A stretch of DNA of 64,000 bases from Azonexus fungiphilus. Lineage in GTDB: Bacteria; Pseudomonadota; Gammaproteobacteria; Burkholderiales; Rhodocyclaceae. Every line of letters begins with the position of its first letter. Position 1 is the stretch's first letter. The stretch is taken from NCBI RefSeq assembly GCF_003634965.1, contig NZ_RBXP01000011.1, positions 62,001 through 126,000 of the forward strand. The letters are read 5' to 3'. Position numbers and translations under genes: made by a program. The notes under the pieces were generated by a model. That model was not told the DNA's origin. It made no database searches and was given only the letters and a program-made list of their open reading frames with translations. This document shows, one piece after another, positions 829 through 58,849 of the stretch.

Positions 829-2936
829 GCGCCGTCCCAGCGCAGCAGCAGCAGCGTCAGGTCGTCGGCCGGCGCGGCGCCGGCCTCGAATTCGCGGACC
901 TTGTCGCGGATTGCCCGGCACAGGGCGTCGGGCGCGGCTTCCGGCAGCGCTGCCAGGCAGGTGGCCAGGCGCTCGCCGCCGAACAACGCGTCGCCGCTGC
1001 CGGCTTCGCTGACGCCGTCGGTGAACAGGCAGAGCAGGTCGCCGGCTTGCAGTTGCAGGCGGGCGGTGGCGTAGGGATAGTCGCCGAGCGCGCACAGTGG
1101 CGGCCCGGCCACGGCTGCGGTGTCGATCCGCGCAACCCGGCCGGCGCGGCGCAACAGCGGCGCATCGTGGCCGGCGCAGGCGTAGTCGAGCGTGCCACGG
1201 TCGACGTCGAGAATGCCGATGAAAGCGGTGACGAACAGAAAGGCCGGGTTTTCCCGGCTGAGTTCGCCCTCGATGTCGCGGACCGCCGCGGCGAGATCGC
1301 CATGGCGGCGCAGCAGCGTGCTGCCCAGGGTTTTCGAGATGGCCATGAACAGGCTGGCCGGCACGCCCTTGCCTGAAACGTCGCCGATGGCGATGCACAA
1401 GCGCTGCCGGTCGAGCATGAAGCAGTCGTAGTAGTCGCCGCCGACGGCCAGCGCCGGTTCGAGCAGGGCGCCGACGGCGAAGCGGCTTTCGCCGGCGAAG
1501 CGTTGTCCGGGGTCGGGCAGCAGTCCCATCTGGATGCGCCGGGCGGCGTCGAGTTCGCCGGCAACGCGGGCGGCCTCTTCGCGGCTCCGCTGGAGGTGGC
1601 GCTCGGCGGCACGCCGGCGGGCGTCGGCGGCGATCAGCGTGTTGCCGAGCAGGGCCATGAAGACCGGGCCGAGCAGCAGCGTCACCGAGGCGCCGTCGAA
1701 CAGCCAGCGGCCGGCGAGGAAGGCGGCGTAGCCGCCACCGACCATGAGCAGGCCGAGCAGGCTGAACGAGAACACCGCGTAGCGCGGGCGCAGCGCCGGC
1801 ACCGCGGCGATCAGCAGCAGGCCGCCGGCGAGCAGCGCCCCGGTCTCGAGCAGCGGCAGCCAGGCCGGACGGCGCAGGGCAGTGCCGGCGAGCAGGCTTT
1901 CGATCACCTGGGCATGCACGTCGACGCCGGGCAGGCTGTCGCCGAGCGGACTGACGACCCGGTCCTGGAGCCCGATGCTGTTGAAGCCGACGATGACGAA
2001 GCGGTCGGCGAAGGTGGCCGGCGGGTATTTGCCGGCCAGCACGTCGGCGGCCGACAGGTAGTAGCTCGCCGAGGCCTTGCCGAAATGCAGCAGCAACTCG
2101 CCGTTGGCCTGCGTCGGCAGCCGGTAGTCGCCGATCCGGATGGCCTGCATGCCGGCACTGCCGGGTTCGGCGACGACGGCGCCGGCGCCGAGTGCCTGGC
2201 GGACCATTTCGAGCGGCAGCGACAGGTAGGGTTGGTCGCGGATCATCGCCAGCGTCGGCACCCGGCGCAGGATGCTGCGCTCGCCATGTTCGCCCGGGGC
2301 GCCCGGGGTGGCGTTGATGAAACCCTCGCCGGCCGCCGCTGCCTGCAGCTCGGGGCGGCTGGCCAGGGCGCTGGAAAATTGCGGCAGGGCGCGGTCGACC
2401 GTCAGCGGCAGCTGCAGCGCCGGCAAGGGATGCACCGGCAGGCGGGCGCCCGGCAACTGGCGCGCCAGGCCGACCACGGCCAGCGTTGTCGGGGCGACTG
2501 CCAGTCTCGCTGCCAGCGTCGCGTCGGGGTCGGGCAGCTGGCGCAGCAGTGCGCCGGCGGCCGGTGGCAGGCGCTCGGCGATCAGTGCCGGCGCCTGCTG
2601 GTCGCGTTCGGCAAAGACGAAATCGAGGCCGACCGCCAGCGGTTGTCCGCCCTGGATGCGTTCGAGCAGCCGTGCAATCAGGTCGCGCGGCCACGGCCAC
2701 TGGCCGTGCGTTGCCAGGCTCTGGCTGTCGATGGCGACGACGATCACCGGCTCGGCGTCGCGCGGGCGCGGCGCCAGCCGCTGGTAGCGGTCGAACTGGC
2801 TGGCCTGCAGCGTCTGCAGCGGAGTCTGTTCGATGTGCTGGAGGAGCAGCGCGGCCGCAGCCAGCAGCAGGGTCGGCAGCAGCCGGCCGCGGCCGGCGCG
2901 CAGCACCGTCGCGAGCAGGGCGGTGCCGCGGTTCAC
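825..2936 (-). CDS. CHASE2-domain PP2C/SpoIIE-type serine phosphatase
   Basis: This is a membrane signal protein of 703 residues. An N-terminal membrane segment (about 19-35) is followed by a periplasmic CHASE2 sensor domain (about 43-350) and three membrane segments (about 358-437). A short coiled coil (438-465) leads to a SpoIIE/PP2C phosphatase domain (about 466-703). The metal-binding acidic motifs are intact: GGDYYD near 500, IGDVSGKG near 517, and a closing PADDLTLLLL. The GTG start at 2936 overlaps the TGA of the upstream hydrolase by two bases. It presumably senses an extracytoplasmic cue and dephosphorylates a STAS protein, most simply the one encoded two genes upstream; the target is inferred. 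Confidence 0.87.
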   Translation of the reverse strand: MNRGTALLATVLRAGRGRLLPTLLLAAAALLLQHIEQTPLQTLQASQFDRYQRLAPRPRDAEPVIVVAIDSQSLATHGQWPWPRDLIARLLERIQGGQPLAVGLDFVFAERDQQAPALIAERLPPAAGALLRQLPDPDATLAARLAVAPTTLAVVGLARQLPGARLPVHPLPALQLPLTVDRALPQFSSALASRPELQAAAAGEGFINATPGAPGEHGERSILRRVPTLAMIRDQPYLSLPLEMVRQALGAGAVVAEPGSAGMQAIRIGDYRLPTQANGELLLHFGKASASYYLSAADVLAGKYPPATFADRFVIVGFNSIGLQDRVVSPLGDSLPGVDVHAQVIESLLAGTALRRPAWLPLLETGALLAGGLLLIAAVPALRPRYAVFSFSLLGLLMVGGGYAAFLAGRWLFDGASVTLLLGPVFMALLGNTLIAADARRRAAERHLQRSREEAARVAGELDAARRIQMGLLPDPGQRFAGESRFAVGALLEPALAVGGDYYDCFMLDRQRLCIAIGDVSGKGVPASLFMAISKTLGSTLLRRHGDLAAAVRDIEGELSRENPAFLFVTAFIGILDVDRGTLDYACAGHDAPLLRRAGRVARIDTAAVAGPPLCALGDYPYATARLQLQAGDLLCLFTDGVSEAGSGDALFGGERLATCLAALPEAAPDALCRAIRDKVREFEAGAAPADDLTLLLLRWDGA

Positions 2937-3895
2937 AGGTCGAGGATCAGGCCGTCGTAGGCGGAGACGACCTCGAGCGGCGGCCGCTCGCCGCGCGTGA
3001 TCTGCTCGAGGCGGCGGGTTTCCTCGAGCAGGCGGGCGAGCTGCTTGTCGTCGTTGACCGGCTCGTGGTGGAACAGCGCCAGGCGCCTGGCGGCCGCGGC
3101 CTGGCACAGCTCGACGCCGATCACGTTGCTCGAGTGGCCCCAGTCCGACTTGACCGATGCCGCCTCGGCCAGCGAGTACATGGCGTCGAAGATGACCAGG
3201 TCGGCGCCGGCGAAGAAGCGGGCGAAGCGTTCGAAGGCCTCGATGTCCTCGAGCTTGTGCTCGCAGTCGGTGCTGTACACCAGCGTCCGGTCCACGCTTT
3301 CGAAGCGGTAGCCGTAGGAATCGCCGGCGTGCAGCTGCAGCGTCGGGATCACGTTGAGGCCGCAGATGTAGTGCGGATGGTCGGGCGTCATCAGGTCGAA
3401 CTCGATCTGGGCGCCGGCCTGCGAGTAATCGACCGGGAAGCAGGGGGCCTGCATCTGCCGGCGCACGGCTTCCTCGAGCCGCGGGTGGCAGCCGTGGATG
3501 ACGATGCGGTTGCCCGGGATATACATCGGCGCGAAGAACGGGAACCCCATCAGGTGGTCCCAGTGCAGATGCGAGATGAAGATGTGGTAGGTCTGCGGGT
3601 TGGGCACGCCGAAGCGGGCGATCTTGGCCTGGCCGAGCGGGCGGGCGCCGCTGCCCATGTCGAGGATGATGTGCTCGGGCCCGCTGGTGACGATCTCGAC
3701 GCAGGAGGAATTGCCGCCGAAAGTGCCGTTGACCGCGAACGGCAGGCCCCGGACGAATTCCTCGAGGGCGTTGCGGTTGCGGAAGCTGCGGCCGTTGGCG
3801 ACAACCAGAGCGGCGACGATCTTTTCGTGGATGTCGCGACTGGTCAGCGAGGTCGGCAGGGCACCGCGGGTGCCCCAGAAGACCACCTGCTTCAT
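2933..3895 (-). CDS. MBL-fold metallo-hydrolase
   Basis: The protein has 320 residues and the metallo-beta-lactamase fold. The zinc signature HLHWDH lies at residues 109-114, with further likely ligands in YSTDCEH, the FDAMYS region and DWGHSS. The overall pattern resembles the PhnP/RNase Z-like phosphodiesterase branch rather than true lactamases. There is no signal peptide, so it should be cytoplasmic. It is the middle gene of a three-gene operon, overlapping the STAS gene by 4 bases and the CHASE2 phosphatase gene by 3. Its substrate is unknown; a nucleotide or cyclic-nucleotide phosphodiester is possible but is only a guess from the fold. Confidence 0.8.
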   Translation of the reverse strand: MKQVVFWGTRGALPTSLTSRDIHEKIVAALVVANGRSFRNRNALEEFVRGLPFAVNGTFGGNSSCVEIVTSGPEHIILDMGSGARPLGQAKIARFGVPNPQTYHIFISHLHWDHLMGFPFFAPMYIPGNRIVIHGCHPRLEEAVRRQMQAPCFPVDYSQAGAQIEFDLMTPDHPHYICGLNVIPTLQLHAGDSYGYRFESVDRTLVYSTDCEHKLEDIEAFERFARFFAGADLVIFDAMYSLAEAASVKSDWGHSSNVIGVELCQAAAARRLALFHHEPVNDDKQLARLLEETRRLEQITRGERPPLEVVSAYDGLILDL

Positions 3896-4242: not shown

Positions 4243-4318
4243 CGCTTGAAAGGGTTCAGGCTGTGGGGTTGATGGGCAAGTATGCCATGGCGTTCCGCAC
4301 GATTAGGTAAAATATTGC

Positions 4319-6547
<2,229 letters not shown>

Positions 6548-10101: not shown

Positions 10102-11970
10102 TTAGCGGTCGACCAGGAATTTTTCGGCAAATTGGCCGGGCGGCAATGGTCGGCTGAGCAGGTAGCCCTGCAGGATGTCGCAGTTCAGCGCTTGCAGTGT
10201 CTGTAACTGCTGCGGCGTTTCGACGCCCTCGGCAACGACTTGCAGCGACAGGCTATGGGCCATCGCGATGATGGCCCGGACCAGCGGTTCGCTGTCGCCG
10301 TCGCTGCGGTCGGCAGCGAGCGGCCGGATGAAGGAGCGGTCGATCTTGAGCACGCTGATCGGCAGGCGCTGCAGGTAGGACAGCGATGAATAGCCGGTGC
10401 CGAAGTCGTCGAGCGCGATGCCGATGCCGGCGGCGCGCAGGCGGTTGAGCTGCTCGATGCCGTCGCCCTCCGGGTCGAGGACCACCGATTCGGTGATTTC
10501 GACTTCCAGCGCCGAAGTCGGCAGGTCGGCCGCGGCCAGCGCGTCAAGCATCCCCTGGGCCAGCGATGGCCGCCAGAACTGGCGGGGCGAGAGATTGATG
10601 GCGATCGGCGGGACTTGCGGATAGCGGTGGCGCCATTCGGCGATCTGCGAGACGGCGCGGGCGATCACCCATTCGCCGATGGGCACGATCAGCCCGCATT
10701 CCTCGGCGACCGGGATGAACTGGTCGGGCGGGATCATCGTCTCGCCATCCTGCCAGCGCAGCAGGGCTTCGGCGCCGACCAGGCGGCCATCGCCGGCTGC
10801 CACCTTGGCCTGGAAGTGCAGGCTCAGCCGGTCCTCCTGCAGGGCCTGGCGGAGGCGGTTCTCGAGCGAGACGCGCTGGCTGACGCGCTGATCCATCTGT
10901 GGCGTGTGCAGGCGGATCGCGTTGCCGCCGGCCGATTTGGCCGCGTACATCGCGGTGTCGGCGTGGCGGAGCAGGGTCTCGCCGTCGTCGGCGTCATCCG
11001 GAAAGAGGCTGACGCCGATGCTGGCGCTGGTGAAGAAATCGGTGCTGCCACCCTTGATCGGCTCGGTGATGCATTCCTTCAGCGCCAGCGCGATCGCCAG
11101 CACATCATCCTCGCCGTGCAGGGGGCTGGCGAGCACGATGAATTCGTCGCCGCCCTGGCGGTAGAGGCGGCAACCGGCCGGCAGGCTGGCGCGCAGGGTT
11201 GCCGAGACAGCCTGGAGCATCTGGTCGCCGGCGCGGTGGCCGAGGCTGTCGTTGATGTTCTTGAAGCGGTCGAGGTCGATGAACAGGACCGCCAGTCGCT
11301 GGCGATCGCGGCGTGCCCGGTCGATGGCGTCCTGCAGGTGTTCGGCGAACAGCAGGCGGTTGGGCAGGCCGGTCAGCATGTCGTGCTGGGCGAGGAACTC
11401 GAGTTCCTCCTGGTGGCGATGGCGTTCGGTGATGTCGGTGACCGAGCCGACCATCAGGTAGGCGCGTCCCTGCGCGTCGCGCACCGCCAGTCCGCGCGAG
11501 GCGATCCAGCGGTATTGCCCGTCGCTGGCGAGGACGCGGTATTCGCAGTAGAAATGACCATTCTCGCCTTTCAGGTGACGTGCCACCGCGGCATTGTAGA
11601 AAGCCCGGTCGTCGGGATGCACCAGGCGCAGCCAGGCGTTGGTGTCGGGTAGGAAGTCTTCGCGGTAACCGAGGATCTGCAGCAGGCGCGAGCCGACCTG
11701 GAGCTTCTTGGTCAGCGGGTTCCAGTTCCAGAAGCCGTCGTGGGCGGCCTGCATCGCCAGCTGATACGCTTGCGAGATCGAGCGGAAATGCTGGTATTCG
11801 GCATAGCCCAGCCACAGCGTCGCCAGGCCGGCGGTGGTGAGCAGCAGCGTTGACCAGGGGCCGGGTGCCAGGGCATTGAAGAGCAGGGCGGCGCTGGTCG
11901 CGACCAGCAGTCCGACGGCCAGGACGGGGTGCTGCAACGAGGATGACCAGGGAGCTCTGGCAACGGTCAT
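10102..11970 (-). CDS. PAS-GGDEF-EAL c-di-GMP signalling protein
   Basis: The protein has 622 residues. Two membrane segments (about 14-34 and 37-58) are followed by a PAS domain (about 65-185), a GGDEF domain (about 190-360) and an EAL domain (about 370-615). The diguanylate-cyclase signature is intact (RQGGDEF). So is the phosphodiesterase signature: EALLRW, EITE, DDFGTGYSS and AEGVE. Both activities are therefore possible, and the net effect on cyclic di-GMP cannot be predicted. It stands alone between typA (convergent) and moaA. Confidence 0.93.
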   Translation of the reverse strand: MTVARAPWSSSLQHPVLAVGLLVATSAALLFNALAPGPWSTLLLTTAGLATLWLGYAEYQHFRSISQAYQLAMQAAHDGFWNWNPLTKKLQVGSRLLQILGYREDFLPDTNAWLRLVHPDDRAFYNAAVARHLKGENGHFYCEYRVLASDGQYRWIASRGLAVRDAQGRAYLMVGSVTDITERHRHQEELEFLAQHDMLTGLPNRLLFAEHLQDAIDRARRDRQRLAVLFIDLDRFKNINDSLGHRAGDQMLQAVSATLRASLPAGCRLYRQGGDEFIVLASPLHGEDDVLAIALALKECITEPIKGGSTDFFTSASIGVSLFPDDADDGETLLRHADTAMYAAKSAGGNAIRLHTPQMDQRVSQRVSLENRLRQALQEDRLSLHFQAKVAAGDGRLVGAEALLRWQDGETMIPPDQFIPVAEECGLIVPIGEWVIARAVSQIAEWRHRYPQVPPIAINLSPRQFWRPSLAQGMLDALAAADLPTSALEVEITESVVLDPEGDGIEQLNRLRAAGIGIALDDFGTGYSSLSYLQRLPISVLKIDRSFIRPLAADRSDGDSEPLVRAIIAMAHSLSLQVVAEGVETPQQLQTLQALNCDILQGYLLSRPLPPGQFAEKFLVDR

Positions 11971-13424: not shown

Positions 13425-15089
13425 ATGAACTCCGGTCAGATTTATGCAAAAACCCCGACAGGGGACGAAGCGGTACGGCAGAGCACGAGGGTGGTTCAGC
13501 GCAACCTCCGGCTGGTTCTGGTTCAGGTTGACGGCAAGCTGACTGTCGGCGAACTGGCCCAGAAGATCGGCAATGCCCGCCTCGTCGAAAATGCCATCCG
13601 CGAACTCGAAAGCGGCGGCTACATCGTTCCGCTGGCCGGTGCCGCGGCTGCCTGGGAAGTCGGTATTCCAGTCGCCCCCCGCGGCGATCAGCAGGTTTCG
13701 GCGATTTCGCAGTTTTCCACCTTCGGCGCCTCGCGGACGCCCTCGCTGGCGGGCCTTGAGGGCCGCAGCAGCAAGTTCTCGTCGTTCGGCAAGCCGATCC
13801 TGCCAGCGACGCGCGTCGATGCCGAGCCACGTCTCGAGGCATCGCCGATGCCGCATGAGGAAGTGCCCGAGCCATTGCCGGGCGCGCGCCGTTCGCCGCT
13901 GGGCATGTTGCTGGCGGGGCTGCTGATCCTCCTGCTCGGCGCCGCACTGGTTTTCTTCTTTTATCCCTATGGCGGGCACAAGGCCGATGTCGAGCGCGCG
14001 GCGACCGGGATGCTCCAGGTGCCGGTCACGGTCGACGGCGTTTCGATGCGGTTTTTGCCGGCACCGGCGCTGGTCATCGACGGCATGCGGGTCGAGGGCG
14101 GCGGAAAGATCGATCAGGTCCGCCTTGGCGCTCCCTGGAAACTGGTTTTCGGTGGCGTCGATTCGCTTGCCGCAGCGACATTGAGCGGCGTCCGTTTCAC
14201 GCCTGCGCAACTGCTCGCGTTGCCCGGTTTCGACAGCCGCAGCTTGCCGCTGGCAGCTTTGCGCCAGGTGACGGTCGAGGATTTTGGATTGCTGCTGCCC
14301 GGCGGTACCGAACTGGCCTCGCTGAACGGGCGTCTGCAATGGTCTGGCGGGCGTTTCGAGCAGGCCGTGCTGGAAACGCCGGATCGCGGCCTGCTCATCA
14401 AGGCACGTCCGCAGTCGGCGGCAATCGCCCTGGAAATCGAAGGGCGGGCGTGGAAGCCAGGTGCGCTCCCGATCAGCTTTGCTGCGCTGCAGGCGCGTGG
14501 TGTCCTGTATGCGGATCGACTGCAGGTCTCGGAAATCGATACCACCGTGCTTGGCGGCGTGCTCAAGGGAGACTGGTTGCTGACCTGGTCCGGCAGTGGC
14601 CTGGCGATGTCCGGTGCCGCCTTGCTGGCGCGGCTCGACCTGCGTCAGGTGGCGGCGGCCCTGGCGCCGGCGCTGAAGATCGAAGGTGAGCTTGCCGGCA
14701 ATCTGCGCTGGCAGGGCCAGGCGGGCGACTGGGATGGTCTGTGGCCTGCGCTGGCGGCGCAGCTGGCTGGCGAGGTGTCGCGCGGGGTCATCCATGGCGT
14801 CGATCTCGGCGAGGCGGCCAGGCGTGGTCCGGGCGCTCAGGTGCGCGGCGGAGCGACCCGCTTCGACAAGCTTGATGCTGCGCTGACGCTCGATGCCGGC
14901 GGTCTGACGATGCGCAATATCCGGCTCGATGCCGGTTTGATGACGGCGAGCGGCCAGGTTGCTGCGAACGCCGGTGGCGATATCGACGGTCGTCTGCTGC
15001 TGCTGGCGCGCTCGTCGGTCGCGACGGTGCGGGTGCCGTTGCTGCTCGGCGGGCGTCCGGGGGATATCGGGCTGACTGTCGAGCGCTGA
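13425..15089 (+). CDS. AsmA-like membrane protein with cytoplasmic N-terminal domain
   Basis: The protein has 554 residues and I cannot name it. Residues 1-80 form a soluble, helix-rich domain (QRNLRLVLVQVDGKLTVGEL...) that resembles a winged-helix fold. A low-complexity Ser/Pro linker (about 80-155) leads to a single membrane segment (about 158-182). Residues 185-554 are repetitive beta-strand material like the C-terminal part of AsmA family proteins (periplasmic lipid-transport-like proteins), including LRWQGQAGDWDG and GELAGNLRW. This suggests a cytoplasmic control domain attached to a periplasmic AsmA-like domain. It starts divergently from the tRNA-Asn promoter and ends at a bidirectional terminator. 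Confidence 0.75.
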   Translation: MNSGQIYAKTPTGDEAVRQSTRVVQRNLRLVLVQVDGKLTVGELAQKIGNARLVENAIRELESGGYIVPLAGAAAAWEVGIPVAPRGDQQVSAISQFSTFGASRTPSLAGLEGRSSKFSSFGKPILPATRVDAEPRLEASPMPHEEVPEPLPGARRSPLGMLLAGLLILLLGAALVFFFYPYGGHKADVERAATGMLQVPVTVDGVSMRFLPAPALVIDGMRVEGGGKIDQVRLGAPWKLVFGGVDSLAAATLSGVRFTPAQLLALPGFDSRSLPLAALRQVTVEDFGLLLPGGTELASLNGRLQWSGGRFEQAVLETPDRGLLIKARPQSAAIALEIEGRAWKPGALPISFAALQARGVLYADRLQVSEIDTTVLGGVLKGDWLLTWSGSGLAMSGAALLARLDLRQVAAALAPALKIEGELAGNLRWQGQAGDWDGLWPALAAQLAGEVSRGVIHGVDLGEAARRGPGAQVRGGATRFDKLDAALTLDAGGLTMRNIRLDAGLMTASGQVAANAGGDIDGRLLLLARSSVATVRVPLLLGGRPGDIGLTVER

Positions 15090-15107
15090 TGCGAATCTGA
15101 CGGTCAA

Positions 15108-15144
15108 CAAGAAAAAGGGCGGGAAAATCCCGCCCTTTTTCTTG
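15108..15144. terminator. Bidirectional terminator
   Basis: CAAGAAAAAGGGCGGGA and its complement around AAA give a 17-pair stem with T-runs on both strands. It serves the AsmA-like gene and the convergent aminotransferase. Confidence 0.88.
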
Positions 15145-23143: not shown

Positions 23144-23790
23144 AATACGAACTCGTGGTCTTCGACTGGGACGGTACGCTACTCGATTCGGCCGGTGCCA
23201 TCGTCCGGGCGATCCAGGCTTCCTGTCGCGACCTTGGTCTGCCGGTCCCGGACGATGCGCGGGCCAGGCATGTGATCGGTCTCGGTCTGGCCGACGCGAT
23301 GCGCCACGCGGTCCCTGACCTGACGCCGGAGCAGGTGCCGGCGATGGTCGAGCGCTATCGTTTCCATTACCTCTCCGGCGATCATGCGCTGACGCTGTTC
23401 GATGGCGTGCCGGCGATGCTGGCACGACTGCAGGCGGCCGGCCACATCCTGGCGGTGGCTACCGGCAAGAGCCGGGTCGGGCTCGAGCGTGCCTTCGATC
23501 ATTCCGGTCTGCGCCCGTTCTTTCCGGCGTCGCGCTGCGCCGACGAATGCCATTCGAAACCGCACCCGCAGATGCTCGAGGAGTTGATGGCGGAATTCGG
23601 CGTTGCGCCGGCGTCGACCGTGATGATCGGCGACACCTCGCACGACCTGCTGATGGCACGCAACGCCGGGGTCGACGGGCTGGCGGTGACCTATGGCGCG
23701 CATCCTCACGATCACCTGCTCGAGCATGCACCGCTGGCCAGCTTCGATGATGTTGCCGGGCTCGAGAGATGGCTGCTGGCCAACGGCTGA
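23140..23790 (+). CDS. HAD-family phosphatase, phosphoglycolate-phosphatase-like
   Basis: The protein has 216 residues. HAD motif I is VFDWDGTLLDS, motif II lies in VATGKS, motif III is the Lys of HSKPHP, and motif IV is MIGDTSHD. It resembles Gph/PpaX-type phosphatases. The substrate is uncertain; phosphoglycolate or a similar small phosphate is likely. The start at 23140 is set by the ATGA overlap with rluC and a GGAG just upstream. Confidence 0.9.
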   Translation: MKYELVVFDWDGTLLDSAGAIVRAIQASCRDLGLPVPDDARARHVIGLGLADAMRHAVPDLTPEQVPAMVERYRFHYLSGDHALTLFDGVPAMLARLQAAGHILAVATGKSRVGLERAFDHSGLRPFFPASRCADECHSKPHPQMLEELMAEFGVAPASTVMIGDTSHDLLMARNAGVDGLAVTYGAHPHDHLLEHAPLASFDDVAGLERWLLANG

Positions 23791-24128
23791 TCTGCGCTGC
23801 CGGCGAGCTGGCGGACGGCGGAAAAGGCGTGCGTTTCACGGTCGACCGTGAAGGGCGGGCAATTCCTGCGTTCGCCATCCGCTACCGCGGTCGGGTCTAC
23901 GCCTACATCAATGAATGCGGCCATGTGCCGGCGGAACTGGATTGGCAGCCGGGCGAGTTCTTCGATCTTTCCGGGCTATACTTGATCTGCGCCATTCATG
24001 GCGCGCTGTACGCACCGGATAGCGGGCGCTGCCTCGGCGGCCGCTGCCAGGGCAGGGGGCTGAAACCCCTGCCGGTGCAGGAAACCGACGGCAATCTTTT
24101 CTTGATGCTGGAAAACAACGATGGATAG
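23769..24128 (+). CDS. Rieske 2Fe-2S protein
   Basis: The protein has 119 residues and is a single Rieske domain, with CGHV and CAIHGALYAPDSGRC supplying the two Cys and two His cluster ligands. There is no signal or membrane segment, so it is probably a soluble ferredoxin-like electron carrier. The gene overlaps the HAD gene by 22 bases and the protease gene by 8. A perfect 18-base palindrome sits in its first third, coding FTVDREG. Confidence 0.88.
   Translation: MAAGQRLICAAGELADGGKGVRFTVDREGRAIPAFAIRYRGRVYAYINECGHVPAELDWQPGEFFDLSGLYLICAIHGALYAPDSGRCLGGRCQGRGLKPLPVQETDGNLFLMLENNDG
23835..23852. repeat. TTCACGGTCGACCGTGAA palindrome
   Basis: A perfect 18-base palindrome inside the Rieske gene, with the recurring ACGGTCGACCGT at its centre (23838-23849). 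Confidence 0.75.
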
Positions 24129-35285: not shown

Positions 35286-35746
35286 TGCAGGGCGAAGCGA
35301 GCACGATCCGCGCCGTGGTCCGTGCGGTGGACGCCGACGGCGCCCATGTCGAGGTTGCCCAGGGCGGCTGCGGGCGTTGTCACGAAAAAGGTGGCTGCGG
35401 TGGCCAGCACCTGACCCAGGCCTTCTGCAGCGGTCCGCGCCGCTACTACGTGGCCAACGACATCGGTGTCCAGGTTGGCGACCAGGTCACTGTCGAGGTC
35501 GCGGCCGGCAGTCTGCGGCGTGGCGCCAACCTGGCCTACGGCATGCCGCTGCTCGGCCTGATCGGCGGTGCGCTGGCCGGCAAGGCGCTGGCCGGTGACG
35601 CTGGGGCGATCATCGGCGGCGGCCTCGGCCTGGTGCTGGCGTACTGGTTGCTCGCCAGAAAAACGCGAAATTCGCCCGTCGACCGTCAAACCCAGCCGCG
35701 CATCGTTGCTCGCCATGCCCCGGCCAGCGAGGCCGTGCCACGATGA
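35285..35746 (+). CDS. rseC: RseC/MucC-family membrane protein
   Basis: The protein has 153 residues. An N-terminal Cys-rich segment (GGCGRCHEKGGCGGQ) is followed by two membrane segments (about 84-98 and 104-120), the RseC/MucC layout, which in other species modulates sigma-E and redox control. Start is the ATG at 35285, one base into the rpoE TGA. A CGTCGACCG element falls in its basic tail (KTRNSPVDRQTQPR). Its stop overlaps mucD by 4 bases. Confidence 0.9.
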   Translation: MQGEASTIRAVVRAVDADGAHVEVAQGGCGRCHEKGGCGGQHLTQAFCSGPRRYYVANDIGVQVGDQVTVEVAAGSLRRGANLAYGMPLLGLIGGALAGKALAGDAGAIIGGGLGLVLAYWLLARKTRNSPVDRQTQPRIVARHAPASEAVPR

Positions 35747-41077: not shown

Positions 41078-41958
41078 CCGAAATCCGCTCCGGCTACATC
41101 GCCATCGTCGGCCGCCCCAACGTCGGCAAGTCGACGCTGCTCAACCACCTGATCGGCGAGAAGATCAGCATCGTCTCGCGCAAGGCGCAGACCACCCGGC
41201 ACCGCATCACCGGCATCCTGACCGAAGCCGACGCCCAGTTCGTCTTCGTCGATACGCCGGGCTTCCAGACCAAGTTCTCGAACGCGCTGAACCGGGCGAT
41301 GAACCGTGGCGTGACGCAGACCTTGAACGACGTCGATCTCGTCCTATTCGTCATCGAGGCCGGCCGCTACGACGCCAAGGACAAGGCGGTCGTCCGCTTG
41401 TTGCCGAAGGACCGGCCGGTGATCCTGGTCATCAACAAGACCGACCTGCTGAAGAGCCGGGAAGCCTTGCTGCCTTTCCTCGCCGAAGTCTCGGCCGATT
41501 TCGACTACACCGCCGTGGTTCCGGTCAGCGCTGCCAAGGGCCGGCAGACGCAGGACCTGCTCAAGGAGGCGCGCAAGCACCTGCCGAACGAGGGCCTGAT
41601 GTTCCCCGAGGACGACCTGACCGACAAGTCGGAACGCTTCCTCGCCGCCGAATACATCCGCGAGAAGGTCTTCCGCCTGCTCGGCGACGAACTGCCGTAC
41701 GCCACCGCCGTCGAGATCGAGAAGTTCGAGGTCGAGGGCAACCTGCGCCGAATTTACGCTGCCATCGTCGTCGACCGTGAGAATCACAAGGCGATCGTCA
41801 TCGGCAAGGGCGGCGAATCGCTCAAGCGCATCGCCAGCGAGGCGCGCCAGGACATGGAGCGGCTGTTCGACGGCAAGGTCTATCTCGAAGTCTGGGTCAA
41901 GGTGAAGTCGGGCTGGAACGACGACGAACGCCTGCTCAAGAGCCTCGGCTACGAGTAA
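41074..41958 (+). CDS. era: GTPase Era
   Basis: The protein has 294 residues. The G1 motif [13 protein letters not shown]3 DTPGFQ and G4 NKTDLL, then a C-terminal KH domain with [12 protein letters not shown] that binds 16S rRNA. Era assists small-subunit assembly. Confidence 0.97.
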
Positions 41959-43469: not shown

Positions 43470-43843
43470 TCGTCGGCATCGGCACCGACATCGTCGCTGT
43501 CGCCCGGCTGCGCGGCATGTGGGAACGGCACGGCGACAAGGCGCTGGACAAGCTGCTGGCGCCGGATGAGCTGGACGATTTCGCGCGTGCCGCCGACAAG
43601 GGCCGCTTCCTGGCCAAGCGCTTCGCCGCCAAGGAGGCCTTTGCCAAGGCTTTCGGCACTGGCGTGCGGCCGCCGGTGCTGCTGCCGGCGATTGCCGTCG
43701 GCCACGACGCACTGGGCAAGCCGGTGTTTCACTTTCACGGTCAACTGGCGGAAATTGTCGAAAACCGGCGGTTGACCGTTCACCTTTCGATCAGCGACGA
43801 AGCCGAATACGCCGTCGCCTACGTTTTGCTGGAGCAAGCATGA
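43466..43843 (+). CDS. acpS: Holo-ACP synthase
   Basis: The protein has 125 residues. AcpS attaches phosphopantetheine to ACP. Asp8 in GIGTDIV and the Glu of [13 protein letters not shown] bind magnesium. It overlaps nagZ by ATGA. The substrate acpP is at 30973 in this window. Confidence 0.96.
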
Positions 43844-45333: not shown

Positions 45334-45879
45334 ATGAACGACAGCCTCTACGACATTCCGCTAAACAGCCTCGACGGCCGCCCGGCCAGCCTGCGCGACC
45401 ACGCCGGCGAAGTGCTGCTGGTGGTCAACGTCGCCTCGCGCTGTGGCCTGACGCCGCAGTACGAGGGCCTGGAAAAGCTGCACCGGGAACTGGCGGTGCG
45501 CGGTTTCCAGGTGCTCGGCTTCCCATGCAACGATTTCGCCGGCCAGGAACCGGGCACACCCGAGGAGATCGGCGCCTTCTGCAGCAGCAATTACGGCGTC
45601 AGCTTTCCGCTGTTCGCCAAGCTGCAGATCAACAGTGCGCCGCGCCATCCGCTCTACGCGGCGCTGATCGCCGCGGCGCCGGCAACCGTCTTCCCGGCCG
45701 GCAGCGATTTCCGCGCCAAGCTCGCCGGCTACAACATGCTGCCGGCCAACGCCAGCGACGTGCTGTGGAATTTCGAAAAATTCCTGGTCGACCGTGAGGG
45801 GCGCGTCGTCGGCCGCTTCTCGCCCGATACCGCGCCCGACGACGCGGCGCTGCGGGCGGCGATCGAGACGCTGCTCTGA
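45334..45879 (+). CDS. Glutathione peroxidase family protein
   Basis: The protein has 181 residues. The peroxidatic Cys is in VNVASRCGLTPQY, with Gln in CNDFAGQEPG and Trp in LWNFEKFLVDREG. There is no signal peptide, so it is a cytoplasmic, probably thioredoxin-dependent, peroxidase. The ribosome site CAGGAG lies 9 bases upstream of the ATG. Its TGA overlaps the next ATG by one base (TGATG). Confidence 0.93.
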   Translation: MNDSLYDIPLNSLDGRPASLRDHAGEVLLVVNVASRCGLTPQYEGLEKLHRELAVRGFQVLGFPCNDFAGQEPGTPEEIGAFCSSNYGVSFPLFAKLQINSAPRHPLYAALIAAAPATVFPAGSDFRAKLAGYNMLPANASDVLWNFEKFLVDREGRVVGRFSPDTAPDDAALRAAIETLL

Positions 45880-46895: not shown

Positions 46896-46903
46896 ACCGG
46901 TTT

Positions 46904-46941
46904 TTGCCCGGATCTGACCGTCGACCGTCAGATCCGGGCAA
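46904..46941. terminator. Long hairpin after the methyltransferase gene, containing the GTCGACC element
   Basis: TTGCCCGGATCTGAC and its exact complement GTCAGATCCGGGCAA flank the loop CGTCGACC, a perfect 15-pair stem. There is no long T-run, but it starts 9 bases after the stop and would block or stabilise the transcript end. Confidence 0.6.
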
Positions 46942-48947: not shown

Positions 48948-49698
48948 AACCCCGACCTCGCTGCTGACCGTCTTCCTGCTCGGCGTCTCGCTCGGGCTGA
49001 CCGCCTGCGCCGCGACCTGCCTGCCGTTCATCGGCACGCTGGCCTTCGGCAAGGCCGGCGGCCGGCGCGCCGGGCTGGTCGATACCGGGCTTTTCCTCGG
49101 CGGTCGCCTGCTCGCCTATGCGATGCTCGGCGGGCTGGCCGGGCTGGTCGGCGCCGGTTTCGTCAAATGGCTGGCCGGCGGCCTCGGCAACCTGGTCATC
49201 GGCGGCGTCGCCTGCCTGACTGCCTTGCTGCTGGCGGCGCCGCCGCAGAAACACCACGCCGTTTGCGGTCGACCGCAAAAACTGGCCAGTTTTCCGCCTT
49301 TCCTGCTCGGCGTCGCCCTGACGCTGATTCCCTGCGCGCCGCTGGCCACGCTGCTGGCGACCGCGGCGGCCGGACCGTCGGCCGGGCAGGGCGCGCTGCT
49401 CGGCCTGGTCTTCGGTCTCGGGGCGCTGCTCACCCCGATGCTCGTCCTGATTCCCGCCTGCGCCAGCCTCGGCGGCCATCTGCGCGGCGACCAGCCGTGG
49501 CTGGCCGGGCTGCTCCGCCAGGGGGCCGCCGTCGTGCTGCTGCTCATCGGCTGCCGGCGGATCGCCACTCTGTCGCCGCTGGCCGCGCTGCTGGTGCTGC
49601 TCTGCGTCCTGCTCGCGGCGCTGCTCATGCATTGGCGGCGGTGGCGGACGCCCCGGGCGCCGGTCTTTCCCCTTGTCTTCCGCGCCGGTGCGGACTGA
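48937..49698 (+). CDS. DsbD/SafE-like membrane protein
   Basis: The protein has 253 residues with about six membrane segments. The halves carry TACAATCLPF and TLIPCAPLA, like the Cys-Pro motifs of CcdA/DsbD and SafE-type (sulfite exporter-like) proteins, which move reducing power or metal across the membrane. Such a protein next to a CcoG-like polyferredoxin is a pairing known from cbb3 oxidase maturation. A palindrome pair at 49262-49293 codes the loop residues CGRPQKLAS. The exact role is not determined. Confidence 0.72.
   Translation: MPAETPTSLLTVFLLGVSLGLTACAATCLPFIGTLAFGKAGGRRAGLVDTGLFLGGRLLAYAMLGGLAGLVGAGFVKWLAGGLGNLVIGGVACLTALLLAAPPQKHHAVCGRPQKLASFPPFLLGVALTLIPCAPLATLLATAAAGPSAGQGALLGLVFGLGALLTPMLVLIPACASLGGHLRGDQPWLAGLLRQGAAVVLLLIGCRRIATLSPLAALLVLLCVLLAALLMHWRRWRTPRAPVFPLVFRAGAD
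49262..49293. repeat. Two adjacent palindromes in a loop of the DsbD/SafE-like gene
   Basis: TTTGCGGTCGACCGCAAA (49262-49279) is followed directly by AAACTGGCCAGTTT (49278-49293 with flanking bases). The first has the GGTCGACC core of the recurring element. Confidence 0.7.
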
Positions 49699-51677: not shown

Positions 51678-51687
51678 ACGGTCGACC
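51678..51687. repeat. ACGGTCGACC element in the TonB receptor/rlmA gap
   Basis: ACGGTCGACC is in the 35-base gap between two convergent stops; a second, partial copy ACGTCGACCGTCA is at 51718-51730 inside the 3' end of rlmA. Confidence 0.65.
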
Positions 51688-51689
51688 GC

Positions 51690-52532
51690 CTAGATCCGCA
51701 GAAAACGGCTCAGGCGGACGTCGACCGTCAGCGTCAGCGTTTGCAGCGCGGCGGCGCGGGCGCGCCCCTCGGGCGTCGCCCGGTAGAGATGCGGGGTCAT
51801 CGCCAGGAGGTCGGCGATGCTGGCCGCATCGTTGAGCGTCAGTGTCTGGCACAGGCTATCGCCGGGAGCGGCGGCAAACCCCTCGGGTAGCGGCGCTTCG
51901 CCGCTGCGCGGCGGCTTCAGCGTCGGGTAGATGATCTCGCGCAGTTCGCGCAGGTGGTCCGGGCCGGCGTCGATCATGATCAATTGGCCGCCCGGCTTGA
52001 GCGCGCGGGCGAATTCCGGATAGACCGGAAAGCCGAACAGGCAGAGCACGCGGTCGAGCGTTGCCGGCAGCACCGGCAGGCGGGCGTTGCTGCCGACGAC
52101 CCAGGTCGCCGTCCCGCGCTGCGCTTTGGCCGCTGCCTGGACGGCCCATTTCGAGATGTCGAGGCCGAGCAGCGCCGGGGATTTTCCGGTGGCGCCGGCT
52201 GCCGCGGCGAGCTGGCGCAGGTAGTAGCCTTCGCCGCAGCCGGCGTCGAGGCAGGCGGCATCAGGCGGCAGCTCGGTCAGGGCGGCGCGCGCCGCCAGTT
52301 CGGCGATCGGCCGGTAGTGGCCGGCTTCCAGGAAGCGGCGGCGGGCGGCGACCATTTCCTTGCTGTCGCCGGGATCGCGTGAACGCTTGTGCTGTACCGG
52401 CAGCAGGTTGACGTAGCCTTGCGCAGCCTGGTCGTAGCGGTGGCCGGCCGGGCAGGTCCAGCCGCCATCGACCGGCGCCAGCGGCGCGCCGTCGAGCGGG
52501 CAGGCGAGGGCGGTGAACGCTGTCGTCGCCAT
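51690..52532 (-). CDS. rlmA: 23S rRNA (guanine-N1) methyltransferase RlmA
   Basis: The protein has 280 residues. An N-terminal zinc finger (CPLDGAPL and CPAGHRYD), the RlmA-like QGYVNLLPVQHKRS, and a Rossmann domain with LDAGCGEGYYL and LLGLDISKWAV match RlmA, which methylates G745 of 23S rRNA. The ATG at 52532 lies right after the ABC-F stop on the same strand. The 3' end, coding LTLTVDVRLS, contains a partial GTCGACC element. Confidence 0.88.
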   Translation of the reverse strand: MATTAFTALACPLDGAPLAPVDGGWTCPAGHRYDQAAQGYVNLLPVQHKRSRDPGDSKEMVAARRRFLEAGHYRPIAELAARAALTELPPDAACLDAGCGEGYYLRQLAAAAGATGKSPALLGLDISKWAVQAAAKAQRGTATWVVGSNARLPVLPATLDRVLCLFGFPVYPEFARALKPGGQLIMIDAGPDHLRELREIIYPTLKPPRSGEAPLPEGFAAAPGDSLCQTLTLNDAASIADLLAMTPHLYRATPEGRARAAALQTLTLTVDVRLSRFLRI

Positions 52533-55161: not shown

Positions 55162-55240
55162 GGTGGGTCCGCGGTTCGGGTTGGTTGAACGGGAATTCTG
55201 GCAGAAAAGCGTGTCGCTTTGGCGACAGCCCGGAAAAGCC

Positions 55241-55262: not shown

Positions 55263-55285
55263 GCGCGATCCGGCAGTTTCCGGAA

Positions 55286-55846: not shown

Positions 55847-55882
55847 GTGGGATGTCCCAAAGCGGAAAAATAAAACGCGAGA

Positions 55883-56974
55883 TTATACCCGTGCGGCGCA
55901 GAATTTGACGAGATTCGTCGCCAGATCCGGCTGTGTGCGCAACGCGGCGTTCCACGCCGCCGCGTGTTGTGCGATTTCATCGTGATGACCGAGAAAGTCG
56001 GCCCAGGCGGCGGCGCAGTCGGCGCCGGTGTTCCAGGCCTGGAACATGGTGAGCAGCGCCGCAGCGGCTGGTTCGGCGAGGCCGGCGCAATAGCGGTCGA
56101 GGAAGGCGTCGAGCTTGACCCGATGGGCGTCGTCGTCCTGCCGGTAGATCTGCCAGACGAAAGGCCGGCCGGCCCACTGGGCGCGGACGAAGGAATCCTC
56201 GCCGCGCACGAAGTTGATCGCGCAACGGCGCAGCAGCGCGTCGTAGTCGTCCTGGGCGAGGAAGGGAATCGGCTCGATGCGCGCCAGGCTGAGCTGCCAC
56301 GGCCCGTCGCCGCCCAGGCGGGCGCGCACCGCAGCCAGCGGCTGGCCGGGCGGCACCAGGCAGCGCAGCGGTCGGGGCGAGGCGGCAAAAGCCTCGAGCA
56401 AGCTGGCGACCGGCGCCGTCGCGTAGCAGAACAGGCTGATTTCCGGCGTCGCCGGCAGCGCGGCGAGTGGCGCCGACGGCAGTCCGGCTTCGCGCAACAG
56501 CCCTGCGGTCGACGACGAAAACCCGGGAAAAACGAAATGCTTGGTCAGCGGCAGCGAGGGGTGCGGCGAGGCCATGCCGTGGCAGGAGTCGACCCAGGAC
56601 TCGGCGCTCAGGTACTCGAGATTGAGCCAGACCGGCGGTGTCGGTCGCTGCGCCATGCCCGCAATGTAGCCGGGCGGCAACTCGCAGGCGAAGGCTTCGA
56701 CGACGACATCGGCGGTTTTTGCCTCGGCAAACCAGTCGACCGTCACAGTGTCTGTCCAGTGGCGGACCTCGACGCCGGCCAGCGCCTGCGCTGGCAACGC
56801 CGGGTCGCAGATCGGGCAGAGCGGCTGCAGGCTGGCCAGGTCGTCCACCCACAGGCGCACGCGCTTGCTGTGCTCGGCCGCCAGTTGCCGGGCGAGTCGC
56901 CAGCAGACGCCGATGTCGCCGTAGTTGTCGACGACGCGGCAGAAAATGTCCCAATGTGGCTGCATGGGCGGCAT
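55883..56974 (-). CDS. earP: EF-P arginine rhamnosyltransferase EarP
   Basis: The protein has 363 residues. EarP transfers rhamnose from dTDP-rhamnose to EF-P Arg32. The N-terminal WDIFCRVVDNYGDIGVCWRLARQL and the C-terminal RGEDSFVRAQWAGRPFVWQIY are family signatures; the Asp of NYGDIG is catalytic in characterised members. ATG at 56974 or 56965 is possible; no ribosome site decides. It lies just upstream of efp and diverges from uvrC by 57 bases. Confidence 0.95.
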   Translation of the reverse strand: MPPMQPHWDIFCRVVDNYGDIGVCWRLARQLAAEHSKRVRLWVDDLASLQPLCPICDPALPAQALAGVEVRHWTDTVTVDWFAEAKTADVVVEAFACELPPGYIAGMAQRPTPPVWLNLEYLSAESWVDSCHGMASPHPSLPLTKHFVFPGFSSSTAGLLREAGLPSAPLAALPATPEISLFCYATAPVASLLEAFAASPRPLRCLVPPGQPLAAVRARLGGDGPWQLSLARIEPIPFLAQDDYDALLRRCAINFVRGEDSFVRAQWAGRPFVWQIYRQDDDAHRVKLDAFLDRYCAGLAEPAAAALLTMFQAWNTGADCAAAWADFLGHHDEIAQHAAAWNAALRTQPDLATNLVKFCAARV

Positions 56975-57021
56975 GTTAACATCGCGGCCCGTGCCTTCTT
57001 CCCCGTTTTTTGCCCATTCCG

Positions 57022-57033
57022 ACGGTCGACCGT
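57022..57033. repeat. ACGGTCGACCGT palindrome spanning the uvrC start
   Basis: A perfect 12-base palindrome whose last two bases begin the GTG start codon of uvrC (57032). This is a third exact copy of the element. Confidence 0.75.
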
Positions 57034-58849
57034 GGCTTTTGATTCAAAATCCTTTCTCGCATCGCTGACCGAACTCCCCGGTGTTTACCGCATGATCGGC
57101 GCCGACGGCGCCGTGCTTTACGTCGGCAAGGCCAAGAACCTGAAGAAACGGGTGTCGTCGTACTTCCGCGACAACCTGTCGAGCCCGCGCATCGCCCATA
57201 TGGTCAGCCAGATCGACCACGTCGAGACGACGGCGACGCGCACCGAAGCCGAAGCGCTGCTCCTTGAAAACAACCTGATCAAGTCGCTGGCGCCGCGTTA
57301 CAACATCCTGTTTCGCGACGACAAGTCCTATCCCTACATCGTGCTGACGCGCGACAAGTTCCCGCGCCTCGGCTTCTACCGCGGCAACCCCGACCGCAAG
57401 GCCGACTACTACGGGCCTTATCCGTCGTCGTGGGCGGTGCGCGACAGCATCCACCTGCTGCAGAAGATGTTCCGCCTGCGCACCTGCGAGGACAGCGTCT
57501 TCGCCAACCGCTCGCGGCCCTGCCTGCTGTACCAGATCAAGCGCTGCAGCGGGCCTTGCGTCGGCTACATCGCCCCCGACGACTACGCCGCCGACGTTCA
57601 ATATGCGGCGATGTTCCTCGCCGGCAAGCAGCAGGAAGTGATCAAGCGCCTCAACACGGCGATGGAGAAGGCCGCCGAGAAGCTCGCCTTCGAGCTGGCG
57701 GCGATCTACCGCGACCAGATCCAGTCGCTGCACCAGGTCCAGGAAAAGCAGTTCGTCTCGAGCAGCAAGGGCGAGGACGTCGATATCGTCGTCGCCGTGC
57801 GCGAAGCCGGACAACTCTGCGTCAACCTGGCGATGGTGCGCGGCGGCCGCCACCTCGGCGACCGGCCGCTGTTCCCGAGCAATGCCGGCGACTCGACCGC
57901 CGCCGACGCGCTGACCGCCTTCCTGCGCCAGCATTACGAATTGCACCCGGCGCCCGGTCGGCTGCTAGTCTCGCCGCTGCCGGAAAGCGAAGAGGTCGAG
58001 GAAACCGCCGCCAGCCTGGCTGAACTCGCCGGCCGCCCGGTGCCCATCGCCGAAGCGCGCACGCTGACGCAGAAGGCCTGGGTCGAGATGGCGCTGCAGA
58101 ATGCCCGTCTGGCCATCCTGGCGCGCAACCAGGCGAGTGCGCAGCAGGAACAGCGCCTGGCCGCGCTGCAGGAGGTGCTGCAACTCGCCGAGCCGATCGC
58201 CCGCATCGAATGCTTCGACATCAGCCACACCATGGGCGAAAGCGCCGTTGCCTCGTGCGTGGTCTACGACGGCAACAAGATGAGCAAGCGCGACTACCGC
58301 CGCTTCAACATCCGCGACATCACGCCCGGCGATGACTACGCGGCCATGCGCCAGGCGGTGACGCGGCGCTACGACGGCGTCGCCAGCGGCGAGGGCAGGG
58401 CGCCCGACCTGATCCTGATCGACGGCGGCAAGGGCCAGGTCGCCTCGGCCTGGGCGGCGCTCGCCGAGCTTGGCCTGACCCATCTCAACATGATCGGCGT
58501 CGCCAAGGGCGAGGAACGCAAGCCCGGCCTGGAAAGCCTGATCTTCCCGGAAGCTGACGGTCGACCGCCGCTCAACCTGAAAAATGACCACCCGGCGCTG
58601 CACCTGATCCAGGAAGTGCGCGACGAGGCGCACCGCTTCGCCATCACCGGCCATCGCGGGCAACGCGCCAAGAGCCGCAAGACGTCCACGCTGGAGAGCC
58701 TGCCCGGCGTCGGCCCGGCCCGGCGCAAGGCGCTGATCGCCCGTTTCGGCGGTCTCGCCGGCGTGCGCGAGGCGAGCATCGACCAGCTCGCCGAGATTCC
58801 CGGCATCGGTCGCGAACTCGCCGAAAAGATTCATTCCGCCTTACACTGA
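57032..58849 (+). CDS. uvrC: Excinuclease ABC subunit C
   Basis: The protein has 605 residues. UvrC makes both incisions in excision repair. N-terminal GIY-YIG nuclease (GVYRMIG and VLYVGKAKNLKKRV), UVR motif near residue 200, an RNase H-like nuclease domain with ECFDISH, and a C-terminal helix-hairpin-helix (LPGVGPARRKALI and IPGIGRELAEKI). The only usable start is GTG at 57032, part of a palindrome. An ACGGTCGACC element (58557-58566) codes EADGRPP. Confidence 0.95.
   Translation: MAFDSKSFLASLTELPGVYRMIGADGAVLYVGKAKNLKKRVSSYFRDNLSSPRIAHMVSQIDHVETTATRTEAEALLLENNLIKSLAPRYNILFRDDKSYPYIVLTRDKFPRLGFYRGNPDRKADYYGPYPSSWAVRDSIHLLQKMFRLRTCEDSVFANRSRPCLLYQIKRCSGPCVGYIAPDDYAADVQYAAMFLAGKQQEVIKRLNTAMEKAAEKLAFELAAIYRDQIQSLHQVQEKQFVSSSKGEDVDIVVAVREAGQLCVNLAMVRGGRHLGDRPLFPSNAGDSTAADALTAFLRQHYELHPAPGRLLVSPLPESEEVEETAASLAELAGRPVPIAEARTLTQKAWVEMALQNARLAILARNQASAQQEQRLAALQEVLQLAEPIARIECFDISHTMGESAVASCVVYDGNKMSKRDYRRFNIRDITPGDDYAAMRQAVTRRYDGVASGEGRAPDLILIDGGKGQVASAWAALAELGLTHLNMIGVAKGEERKPGLESLIFPEADGRPPLNLKNDHPALHLIQEVRDEAHRFAITGHRGQRAKSRKTSTLESLPGVGPARRKALIARFGGLAGVREASIDQLAEIPGIGRELAEKIHSALH
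58557..58566. repeat. ACGGTCGACC element in uvrC
   Basis: ACGGTCGACC followed by GCCG, an imperfect copy of the recurring palindrome inside the 3' third of uvrC. Confidence 0.6.

What the first reader, a model, noticed from the sequence alone, without database searches (positions are those of the whole stretch)
2393..58566. A recurring GGTCGACC-centred palindrome, like a highly iterated palindrome, spread through the window
ACGGTCGACCGT occurs exactly at 6463-6474, 23838-23849 and 57022-57033. GGTCGACCGT or its reverse complement (10 of the 12 bases) also occurs at 2393-2402, 45786-45795, 51678-51687 and 58557-58566. Related copies are at 26141-26150, 35677-35685, 41770-41778, 46916-46929, 49262-49279, 51718-51730 and 63373-63385. 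For a GC of about 65%, I expect well under one such 10-mer in 64 kb (about 0.26, my own estimate), against seven seen. Copies tend to be in protein tails, loops, start regions and hairpins, as for the cyanobacterial HIP1 element. The extended symmetry (18 bases at two sites) suggests selection on the DNA or a methylase/repair bias rather than on codons.
Basis: partly seen in the sequence, partly recalled or inferred. Interest (0 to 1): 0.75.

Follow-up and report, generated by a model that had tools for sequence, protein, structure and literature searches.

The report
Candidate DNA-uptake signal in Azonexus
The repeated palindrome is two overlapping copies of a directional DNA tag, scattered about a thousand times through this water bacterium's genome, that looks like the self-recognition tags some other bacteria use to take up their own kind's DNA.

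Summary
The repeats are real: 120 exact ACGGTCGACCGT genome-wide against 1-2 expected. But the palindrome is not the unit. It is the overlap of two copies of a directional, gapped motif, RCGGTCRAC-N15-[A/T]4: a GC-rich core, a weak A/T step at +10/11 and a strong A/T tract at +19 to +22. The window holds 24 (shuffles 0.07, mirrored 0); the genome 1345 (mirrored 2). It marks one genus, Azonexus/Dechloromonas: 392 sampled other genomes of the order have at most 21. Genus members range from 2 to 1265 copies, in A- and G-type dialects. Sites change by substitution, not insertion; they are kept in a copy-rich relative and mostly missing in a copy-poor one. They are absent from a prophage, favour intergenic DNA and almost never carry a core mismatch. 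These are marks of Haemophilus-type uptake signals, known only from Pasteurellaceae and (as DUS) Neisseriaceae. Best reading: an independent uptake-signal system in a third family. Uptake and receptor are untested; broken comEC did not correlate significantly with copy number. HIP1/methylase is not supported.

The parts
2375..2402 (-). directional element, A-type core
3709..3736 (-). directional element, G-type core (CAAC form)
5115..5142 (-). directional element, G-type core
6447..6474 (-). directional element, left arm of the 6463-6474 palindrome
6463..6490 (+). directional element, right arm of the 6463-6474 palindrome; near the 3' end of a radical-SAM gene (4319-6547)
10105..10132 (+). directional element, G-type core
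14028..14055 (+). directional element, A-type core
15100..15127 (+). directional element, A-type core (CAAC form)
23594..23621 (-). directional element, A-type core
23822..23849 (-). directional element, left arm of the 23838-23849 palindrome (right arm has its A/T tract one base off register, read)
25021..25048 (+). directional element, G-type core
30011..30038 (-). directional element, A-type core
34042..34069 (-). directional element, G-type core
35659..35686 (-). directional element, A-type core, intergenic by my gene calls
41751..41778 (-). directional element, A-type core
43737..43764 (+). directional element, A-type core (CAAC form)
43752..43779 (-). directional element, A-type core (CAAC form), opposed to the previous one with overlapping tracts
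45786..45795 (-). core with A/T tract one base off register (not counted among the 24)
46901..46928 (-). directional element in an intergenic near-perfect inverted repeat
49262..49279 (.). 18-base G-type palindrome, A/T tract of the right arm one base off register (not counted among the 24)
51678..51705 (+). directional element, A-type core, intergenic by my gene calls
56505..56532 (+). directional element, G-type core
56716..56743 (-). directional element, A-type core
57006..57033 (-). directional element, left arm of the 57022-57033 palindrome just upstream of the uvrC region (GIY-YIG domain from about 57080)
57022..57049 (+). directional element, right arm of the 57022-57033 palindrome; identical in G151, core gapped in G158 and G161
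58557..58584 (+). directional element inside uvrC; in G151, G158 and G161 the core is changed and the tract position reads CCGTCC

Best explanation
The repeat is an uptake-signal-like sequence: a directional motif, RCGGTC[G/a]AC followed 15 bases on by an A/T tract. Inferred mechanism: in species of the Azonexus/Dechloromonas group a surface receptor of the type IV pilus/competence machinery binds the core, and the A/T tracts, about one and two helical turns from the core centre, let the DNA bend as it is pulled in. Fragments with the motif are taken up preferentially and recombined, so the motif accumulates by molecular drive in kin genomes and decays once the preference is lost. The palindrome is two such signals overlapping through the shared GTCGAC. 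Shown here: motif, direction, spacing, abundance, dialects, difference between species by substitution, absence from a prophage, near-absence of core mismatches, presence of comEC and comEA homologues. Inferred: receptor, uptake preference, drive, order of gains and losses.
For: Directionality. An unbiased 7-mer by offset scan returns this motif first in 8 of 9 genome samples: 5 of 5, 3 of 4 (the miss, G150, has 7 A+G copies in all). 1345 copies against mirrored 2 in the genome; at most 21 in 392 sampled genomes of the order outside the genus and at most 4 of the A-type in the family outside the genus, except 9 in G031. Core almost never mismatched when the tract is present: 204 perfect (chance 4.3) against 24 one-mismatch (chance 16.8) in G000; 149 (5.6) against 21 (17.0) in G147; 168 (6.3) against 31 (20.7) in G198. 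Core kept at 38 of 46 orthologous sites in copy-rich G198, against 63 of 149 for control words and 8 of 19 for cores without the tract; kept at 21 of 104 in copy-poor G158, controls 208 of 433. Substitution rather than insertion: 34 of 40 one-sided A-type cores ungapped in G158. Dialects. A prophage and an integrase-bearing island free of elements. Intergenic and convergent-gene enrichment. comEC and comEA homologues in 75 of 76 genomes each. Layout resembles the published USS: 9-base core and two downstream AT-rich segments (passages).
Against: No uptake data. No paper on transformation or uptake sequences in this group was seen (one search listed 10 of 1,480). Broken comEC does not go significantly with low copy number (medians 21.5 of 14 genomes against 222 of 55, p=0.064; more complete genomes 53 of 11 against 258 of 42, p=0.16), and G157, G159 and G205 have split comEC matches with 616-826 copies. 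Copy-poor G151 and G158 have an apparently whole comEC. The comEC and comEA models also ring in E. coli and other control genomes, so presence proves little. No pilin gene was seen to track the motif. The nearer A/T segment is weak and lies farther from the core than in the USS. Spacing along the chromosome is random, not even. The A-type dialect does not follow the one-gene tree. Retention tests use three genome pairs without correction for the tree; G151 alone gives 6 of 19, p=0.07.
Confidence: 0.72

Rival explanations
1. Binding site of a chromosome-organising or regulatory protein (nucleoid-associated, nucleoid-occlusion or global regulator) that has spread in this genus; A/T tracts help DNA bend around the protein.
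For: Symmetric pairs, A/T tracts about one and two helical turns away and intergenic enrichment fit a bent protein-DNA complex.
Against: Mismatch-free cores are unlike regulatory sites, which have a more relaxed consensus (argument made in PMC1626085, passages). Most copies lie inside genes by my gene calls (152 of 183 merged sites in G000, 112 of 145 in G198). Copy number varies from 2 to 1265 within one genus.
Confidence: 0.13
2. HIP1-like palindrome kept by a DNA methylase or mismatch-repair bias.
For: Palindromic core GTCGAC; strong over-representation; HIP1 too is low in some genomes whose relatives have it high (PMC4390886, passages).
Against: One-sided tract at a fixed distance; cores without the tract are not specially kept (8 of 19); the CAAC forms, not palindromic, make up about a quarter of elements. 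Methylase genes were not searched.
Confidence: 0.05
3. Strand-oriented recombination or segregation signal (Chi- or KOPS-like).
For: Short, directional, very abundant.
Against: No strand bias in two contiguous stretches: 102 plus and 102 minus over 464 kb of G000, 88 and 80 over 400 kb of G198. This would mislead only if both stretches straddled the origin or terminus, which was not checked.
Confidence: 0.04
4. Mobile palindromic repeat (REP- or MITE-like) copied into new places.
For: Some copies sit in long inverted repeats (for example L012 and L015) and some lie at alignment gaps (6 of 40 cores gapped).
Against: Orthologous sites mostly align without gaps and differ by substitutions at motif positions (34 of 40); most bases between core and tract are not shared between copies.
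Confidence: 0.04

Closest known systems
Uptake signal sequence (USS) of Pasteurellaceae, Hin and Apl types
   Same: Directional 9-base core; two AT-rich segments 3' of the core; very strong consensus; arises by mutation; non-coding preference; opposed pairs; more than one dialect; the G-type dialect shares GCGGT with ANNNGCGGT.
   Different: Different family; core RCGGTCRAC lacks the leading A (position -10 is mostly T or G); the nearer AT segment is weak and farther from the core (the USS one starts just 3' of it); opposed pairs share the whole GTCGAC (overlap of USS pairs was not checked); 0.2-0.4 per kb in the copy-rich genomes against about one per kb for USS.
DNA uptake sequence (DUS) of Neisseriaceae
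   Same: Abundant short directional motif with several dialects; inverted pairs linked to gene ends (passages).
   Different: DUS is continuous with an invariant CTG; here the motif is gapped with an A/T tract and has no CTG. DUS in inverted pairs are said not to overlap, apart from a simDUS/kingDUS arrangement in Simonsiella; here they do.
HIP1 of cyanobacteria
   Same: Over-represented palindrome, uneven between related genomes.
   Different: HIP1 is the 8-mer GCGATCGC linked to methyltransferases (start of abstract; passages); here the unit is directional with a distant tract.

Membership tests
USS (general kind) | highly over-represented directional core | tested here: met
   1345 against mirrored 2 in the genome; 84 of 110 one-sided cores have the tract on one side, 0 only on the other
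USS (general kind) | two AT-rich segments 3' of the core, about one and two helical turns away | tested here: met
   strong at +18 to +23, weak at +10/+11 in G000, G147, G198; the weak one is farther from the core than in the USS
USS (general kind) | perfect cores outnumber one-mismatch cores | tested here: met
   with the tract: 204 against 24, 149 against 21, 168 against 31 in copy-rich G000, G147, G198; 17 against 20 and 29 against 15 in copy-poor G158 and G151
USS (general kind) | arises by mutation, not insertion | tested here: met
   34 of 40 cores ungapped in G158, identity lower at motif positions than in flanks
USS (general kind) | preference for non-coding DNA and for opposed pairs | tested here: met
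   26 of 112 intergenic against 8.1 expected in G000; 0.33 (G000) and 0.32 (G198) of RCGGTCGAC sites are in full palindromes, about 0.05 expected; 0.52 in the biased G147 sample
USS (general kind) | dialects that follow the species tree | tested here: inconclusive
   A-type G147 and G201 form a 100/100 clade, but A-type G000 lies among G-type species; one gene, 22 genomes
USS (general kind) | competence machinery present | tested here: met
   comEC matches in 75 of 76 (68 over the cut-off), comEA in 75 of 76 (67 over the cut-off); not discriminating, and broken comEC not significantly tied to copy number
USS (general kind) | preferential uptake of DNA that carries it | not testable with these tools
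   needs an uptake assay
USS (general kind) | a surface receptor | tested here: inconclusive
   PF16732 pilins in 70 of 76 and GspH pilins in 69 of 76 genomes; no tie to the motif seen by eye, no formal test
Pasteurellaceae USS (sequence family ANNNGCGGT) | core ANNNGCGGT | tested here: not met
   position -10 is T 57%, G 25% in the G-type dialect of G198
Neisseriaceae DUS | continuous motif up to about 13 bases with invariant CTG | tested here: not met
   gapped motif without CTG
HIP1-type palindrome | symmetric unit | tested here: not met
   tract on one side only at one-sided cores
HIP1-type palindrome | cognate methyltransferase | not tested
   methylase genes were not searched

The most novel reading that the evidence does not exclude
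A third, independently evolved self-DNA recognition system for natural transformation, in Azonexus/Dechloromonas (Azonexaceae). Its signal has a Haemophilus-like layout, can overlap fully with an opposed copy as a palindrome, has changed dialect more than once within one genus (by single-base substitution at shared sites where this could be seen), and has collapsed in some species, so that birth, switching and death of an uptake language can be watched between sister species.
Probability: 0.65. Interest if true: 0.9.

Novelty: new variant of a known kind. Interest (0 to 1): 0.83.

Why it matters
[quoted passage not shown] A third family with a core-plus-AT-tract signal would show that the design evolves repeatedly, would point to a shared physical need (bending during uptake), and would give dozens of related species with anything from a few to over a thousand signals. 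That makes the old question of how uptake signals arise and vanish directly testable in environmental bacteria.

Tried and rejected
HIP1/methylase, mobile repeat and Chi/KOPS readings were held against the sequence and disfavoured (see rivals). Broken comEC against motif count: first on A-type counts (p=0.075), then on A+G totals (p=0.064); neither significant. The 14 'broken' genomes were picked by my reading: pieces 2-64 kb apart, pieces on two contigs (G159, G161, G205, which may be assembly breaks), or one piece only (G221); 7 further genomes with partial, closely split or missing matches were dropped from the test. Even spacing, reported for USS (recalled), was not found: CV 0.99 in G000, and 1.34 in G198 where the prophage makes a gap. 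ComP-family and GspH pilins were looked at as receptors; no link seen. A first uvrC tree used unoriented loci and was discarded; one search replaces it. The pooled controls counted one word set twice; one search gives the corrected figures for G198 and G158. The G147 sample was picked partly where the 12-mer was listed, so its density, palindrome share and intergenic count are biased; its motif shape is used. One search used one-sided A-type sites only. Element-free islands were picked as the longest gaps, so their Poisson figures are post hoc. The home-made gene caller picks shadow ORFs in places (for example opposite uvrB), so coding and intergenic counts are approximate. Strand balance over the whole G147 contig was dropped as evidence, because it cannot show a skew that changes sign between replichores.
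Full report
Observation. All stated coordinates hold. In the window the 10-mer CGGTCGACCG occurs 8 times against 1.55 expected by a third-order Markov model and the 12-mer 3 times against 0.02. The window is bases 62001-126000 of contig 1 of a 3.55-Mb genome in 20 contigs. There the 12-mer occurs 120 times, its mirror 1 time, with 1.0-2.3 expected from Markov models trained on a 464-kb sample.

Where it is. A scan with the window's uvrC protein returned 41 loci, 25 of them titled Azonexus, Dechloromonas, Azonexaceae, Rhodocyclaceae or Rhodocyclales, the rest under broader or other labels; NCBI places Azonexus in Azonexaceae, Rhodocyclales, Betaproteobacteria. Matching coordinates tie several unnamed handles to names (my inference): G158 = A. 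hydrophilus DSM 23864, G159 = A. hydrophilus ZS02, G198 = Azonexus sp. R2A61, G151 = MAG HJP_bin19, G161 = MAG UBA5582, G201 = MAG.149, G205 = MAG STC_125, G150 = D. agitata is5, G062 = D. denitrificans ATCC BAA-841.

The real unit. Reading beyond the palindrome in sites of the window's genome and of G201 and G147 showed A/T runs at fixed distances on both sides. At ACGGTCGAC cores with only one intact arm the run lies on one fixed side: 84 of 110 sites in the 464-kb sample of the window's genome (4 of these on both sides, none only on the wrong side), 50 of 76 in G147 (1 only on the wrong side), 6 of 14 in copy-poor G158 (0); GTCGAC sites neither preceded by G nor followed by C have it on either side at 1 of 142, 2 of 53 and 5 of 101. 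The motif is therefore directional: T at -8, then R-CGGTC-[G/a]-AC, weak A/T at +10/11, G/C at +15/16, A/T at +18 to +22, then C/T and C. The palindrome is two of these sharing GTCGAC. About a third of RCGGTCGAC sites in G000 and G198 are in such pairs against about 5% expected. A scan that assumed only a 7-mer followed by four A/T at any offset from 8 to 29 put this motif first in all five large samples and in three of four 100-kb samples; the fourth, G150, has almost no copies.

Counts. RCGGTCRAC-N15-WWWW: window 24, shuffles 0.07, mirrored pattern 0; own genome 1345, mirrored 2. Among 399 genomes drawn from the order, the 7 genus members have 1345, 1148, 973, 909, 909, 744 and 83, and the other 392 at most 21, with mirrored controls up to 39. 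Within 346 genomes of the family, A-type counts outside the genus are at most 4 except 9 in G031. Over 76 genus genomes A+G totals (GAC form) run from 2 to 1265: 39 have 128 or more, 26 have fewer than 30. The A share runs from 0.07 to 0.93 among those 39: G147 and G201 are A-type, most others G-type, and G000 is A-type among G-type relatives in a 22-genome uvrC tree.

Evolution of sites. In G158 (86% identical over the aligned part), motif positions are less conserved (core 0.73, tract 0.70) than flanks (0.84-0.85), and 34 of 40 one-sided A-type cores align without gaps. In copy-rich G198 (85% identical) the core is intact at 38 of 46 sites, against 63 of 149 for control words (Fisher p=1e-6) and 8 of 19 for cores without the tract (p=0.002); in G158 only 21 of 104 are intact, against 208 of 433 for controls (p=1e-7). 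In G151, 6 of 19 against 49 of 93 (p=0.07, controls there with one word set counted twice). At the 38 sites shared by G000 and G198 with the rest of the core intact, the base at -6 in G000/G198 is A/G at 8, G/A at 1, A/A at 12, G/G at 16 and A/C at 1; 8 further sites have lost the core. So dialect can change by one substitution. Most G000 sites that align in G198 are shared with it, from which I infer that they predate the split from the copy-poor sisters, which then lost theirs.

Genomic context. By my gene calls elements favour intergenic DNA (26 of 112 against 8.1 expected in G000; 56 of 103 against 10.4 in the biased G147 sample), most of all between convergent genes (1.42 and 3.95 per kb against 0.35 and 0.30 in genes, in G000 and G198), and between tandem genes 11 of 16 and 8 of 14 lie within 50 bases after a stop codon. 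No strand bias: 102/102 in G000, 88/80 in G198. Spacing is random in G000. The longest empty gap in G198 (31.3 kb) is a prophage with terminase, tail sheath and tape-measure genes. The longest in G000 (20.6 kb) has GC 0.57 against 0.66 and a phage-type integrase, but also ordinary genes at its edges.

Consensus strength. With the tract present, perfect cores are 204 (chance 4.3) and one-mismatch cores 24 (chance 16.8) in G000; 149 and 21 in G147; 168 and 31 in G198; in copy-poor G158 17 and 20, in G151 29 and 15. PMC1626085 (passages read) names this as a puzzling mark of uptake signals and unlike regulatory sites.

Function. The layout resembles the USS: 9-base core and two AT-rich segments downstream (PMC12616744 and PMC1626085, passages). 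ComEC matches are present in 75 of 76 genus genomes (68 over the family cut-off) and ComEA matches in 75 of 76 (67 over), a ComP-type pilin in 70 of 76, a GspH-type pilin in 69 of 76. These are expected but not discriminating; the ComEC and ComEA models also ring in E. coli and other controls. comEC is split or partial in 14 genomes by my reading; their median copy number is 21.5 against 222 in 55 intact ones, but this is not significant (p=0.064) and has clear exceptions (G157, G159, G205). The receptor is unknown; ComP-type pilins here are very variable.

Comparison and novelty. It fails the sequence tests of Pasteurellaceae USS (ANNNGCGGT) and Neisseriaceae DUS (continuous, CTG), so it is not filed as a member of either; it works like a USS on the sequence-level features tested, except even spacing, with agreement of dialect and tree left open. 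No paper on uptake sequences or transformation in this group was seen in the library of open PMC papers (listings; one search listed 10 of 1,480 papers and 15 of 17). One listed paper that holds both Azonexus and competence terms (PMC9045156, passages) does not report competence in Azonexus. The step from signal to uptake is inference.

Noticed in passing
genus genomes, (G150, G195, G156, G202, G181, G157, G193, G220): comEC is split into pieces 20-64 kb apart near a few recurring positions of the protein model (about 143-166, 349-420, 590), as if large elements insert into this competence gene.
   Followed up: partly
G198:C7 about 533975-565270: A prophage with terminase, tail sheath and tape-measure genes, free of the motif.
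   Followed up: yes
G000:C1 about 378700-399300: Low-GC stretch with a phage-type integrase and a T5orf172 protein, free of the motif.
   Followed up: partly
L182-L211, L234-L244: PF16732 (ComP-type) minor pilins are very variable between species of one genus.
   Followed up: partly
window, whole: GGATCC (2 against 18) and CGATCG (38 against 88) are under-represented and GAATTC (30 against 13) over-represented against a third-order model.
   Followed up: no
L028: A record titled Desulfobulbus sp. carries an Azonexus-like uvrC (85% identical), perhaps misbinned.
   Followed up: no
G147 and G201 uvrC (L078, L077): The UvrC match is in two pieces 30 bases apart in G147 and 1875 instead of 1806 bases long in G201, so both seem to carry a short insertion.
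   Followed up: no
G031 (genus g32): The only genome outside the genus with a slight excess of the A-type motif (9 against 0).
   Followed up: no
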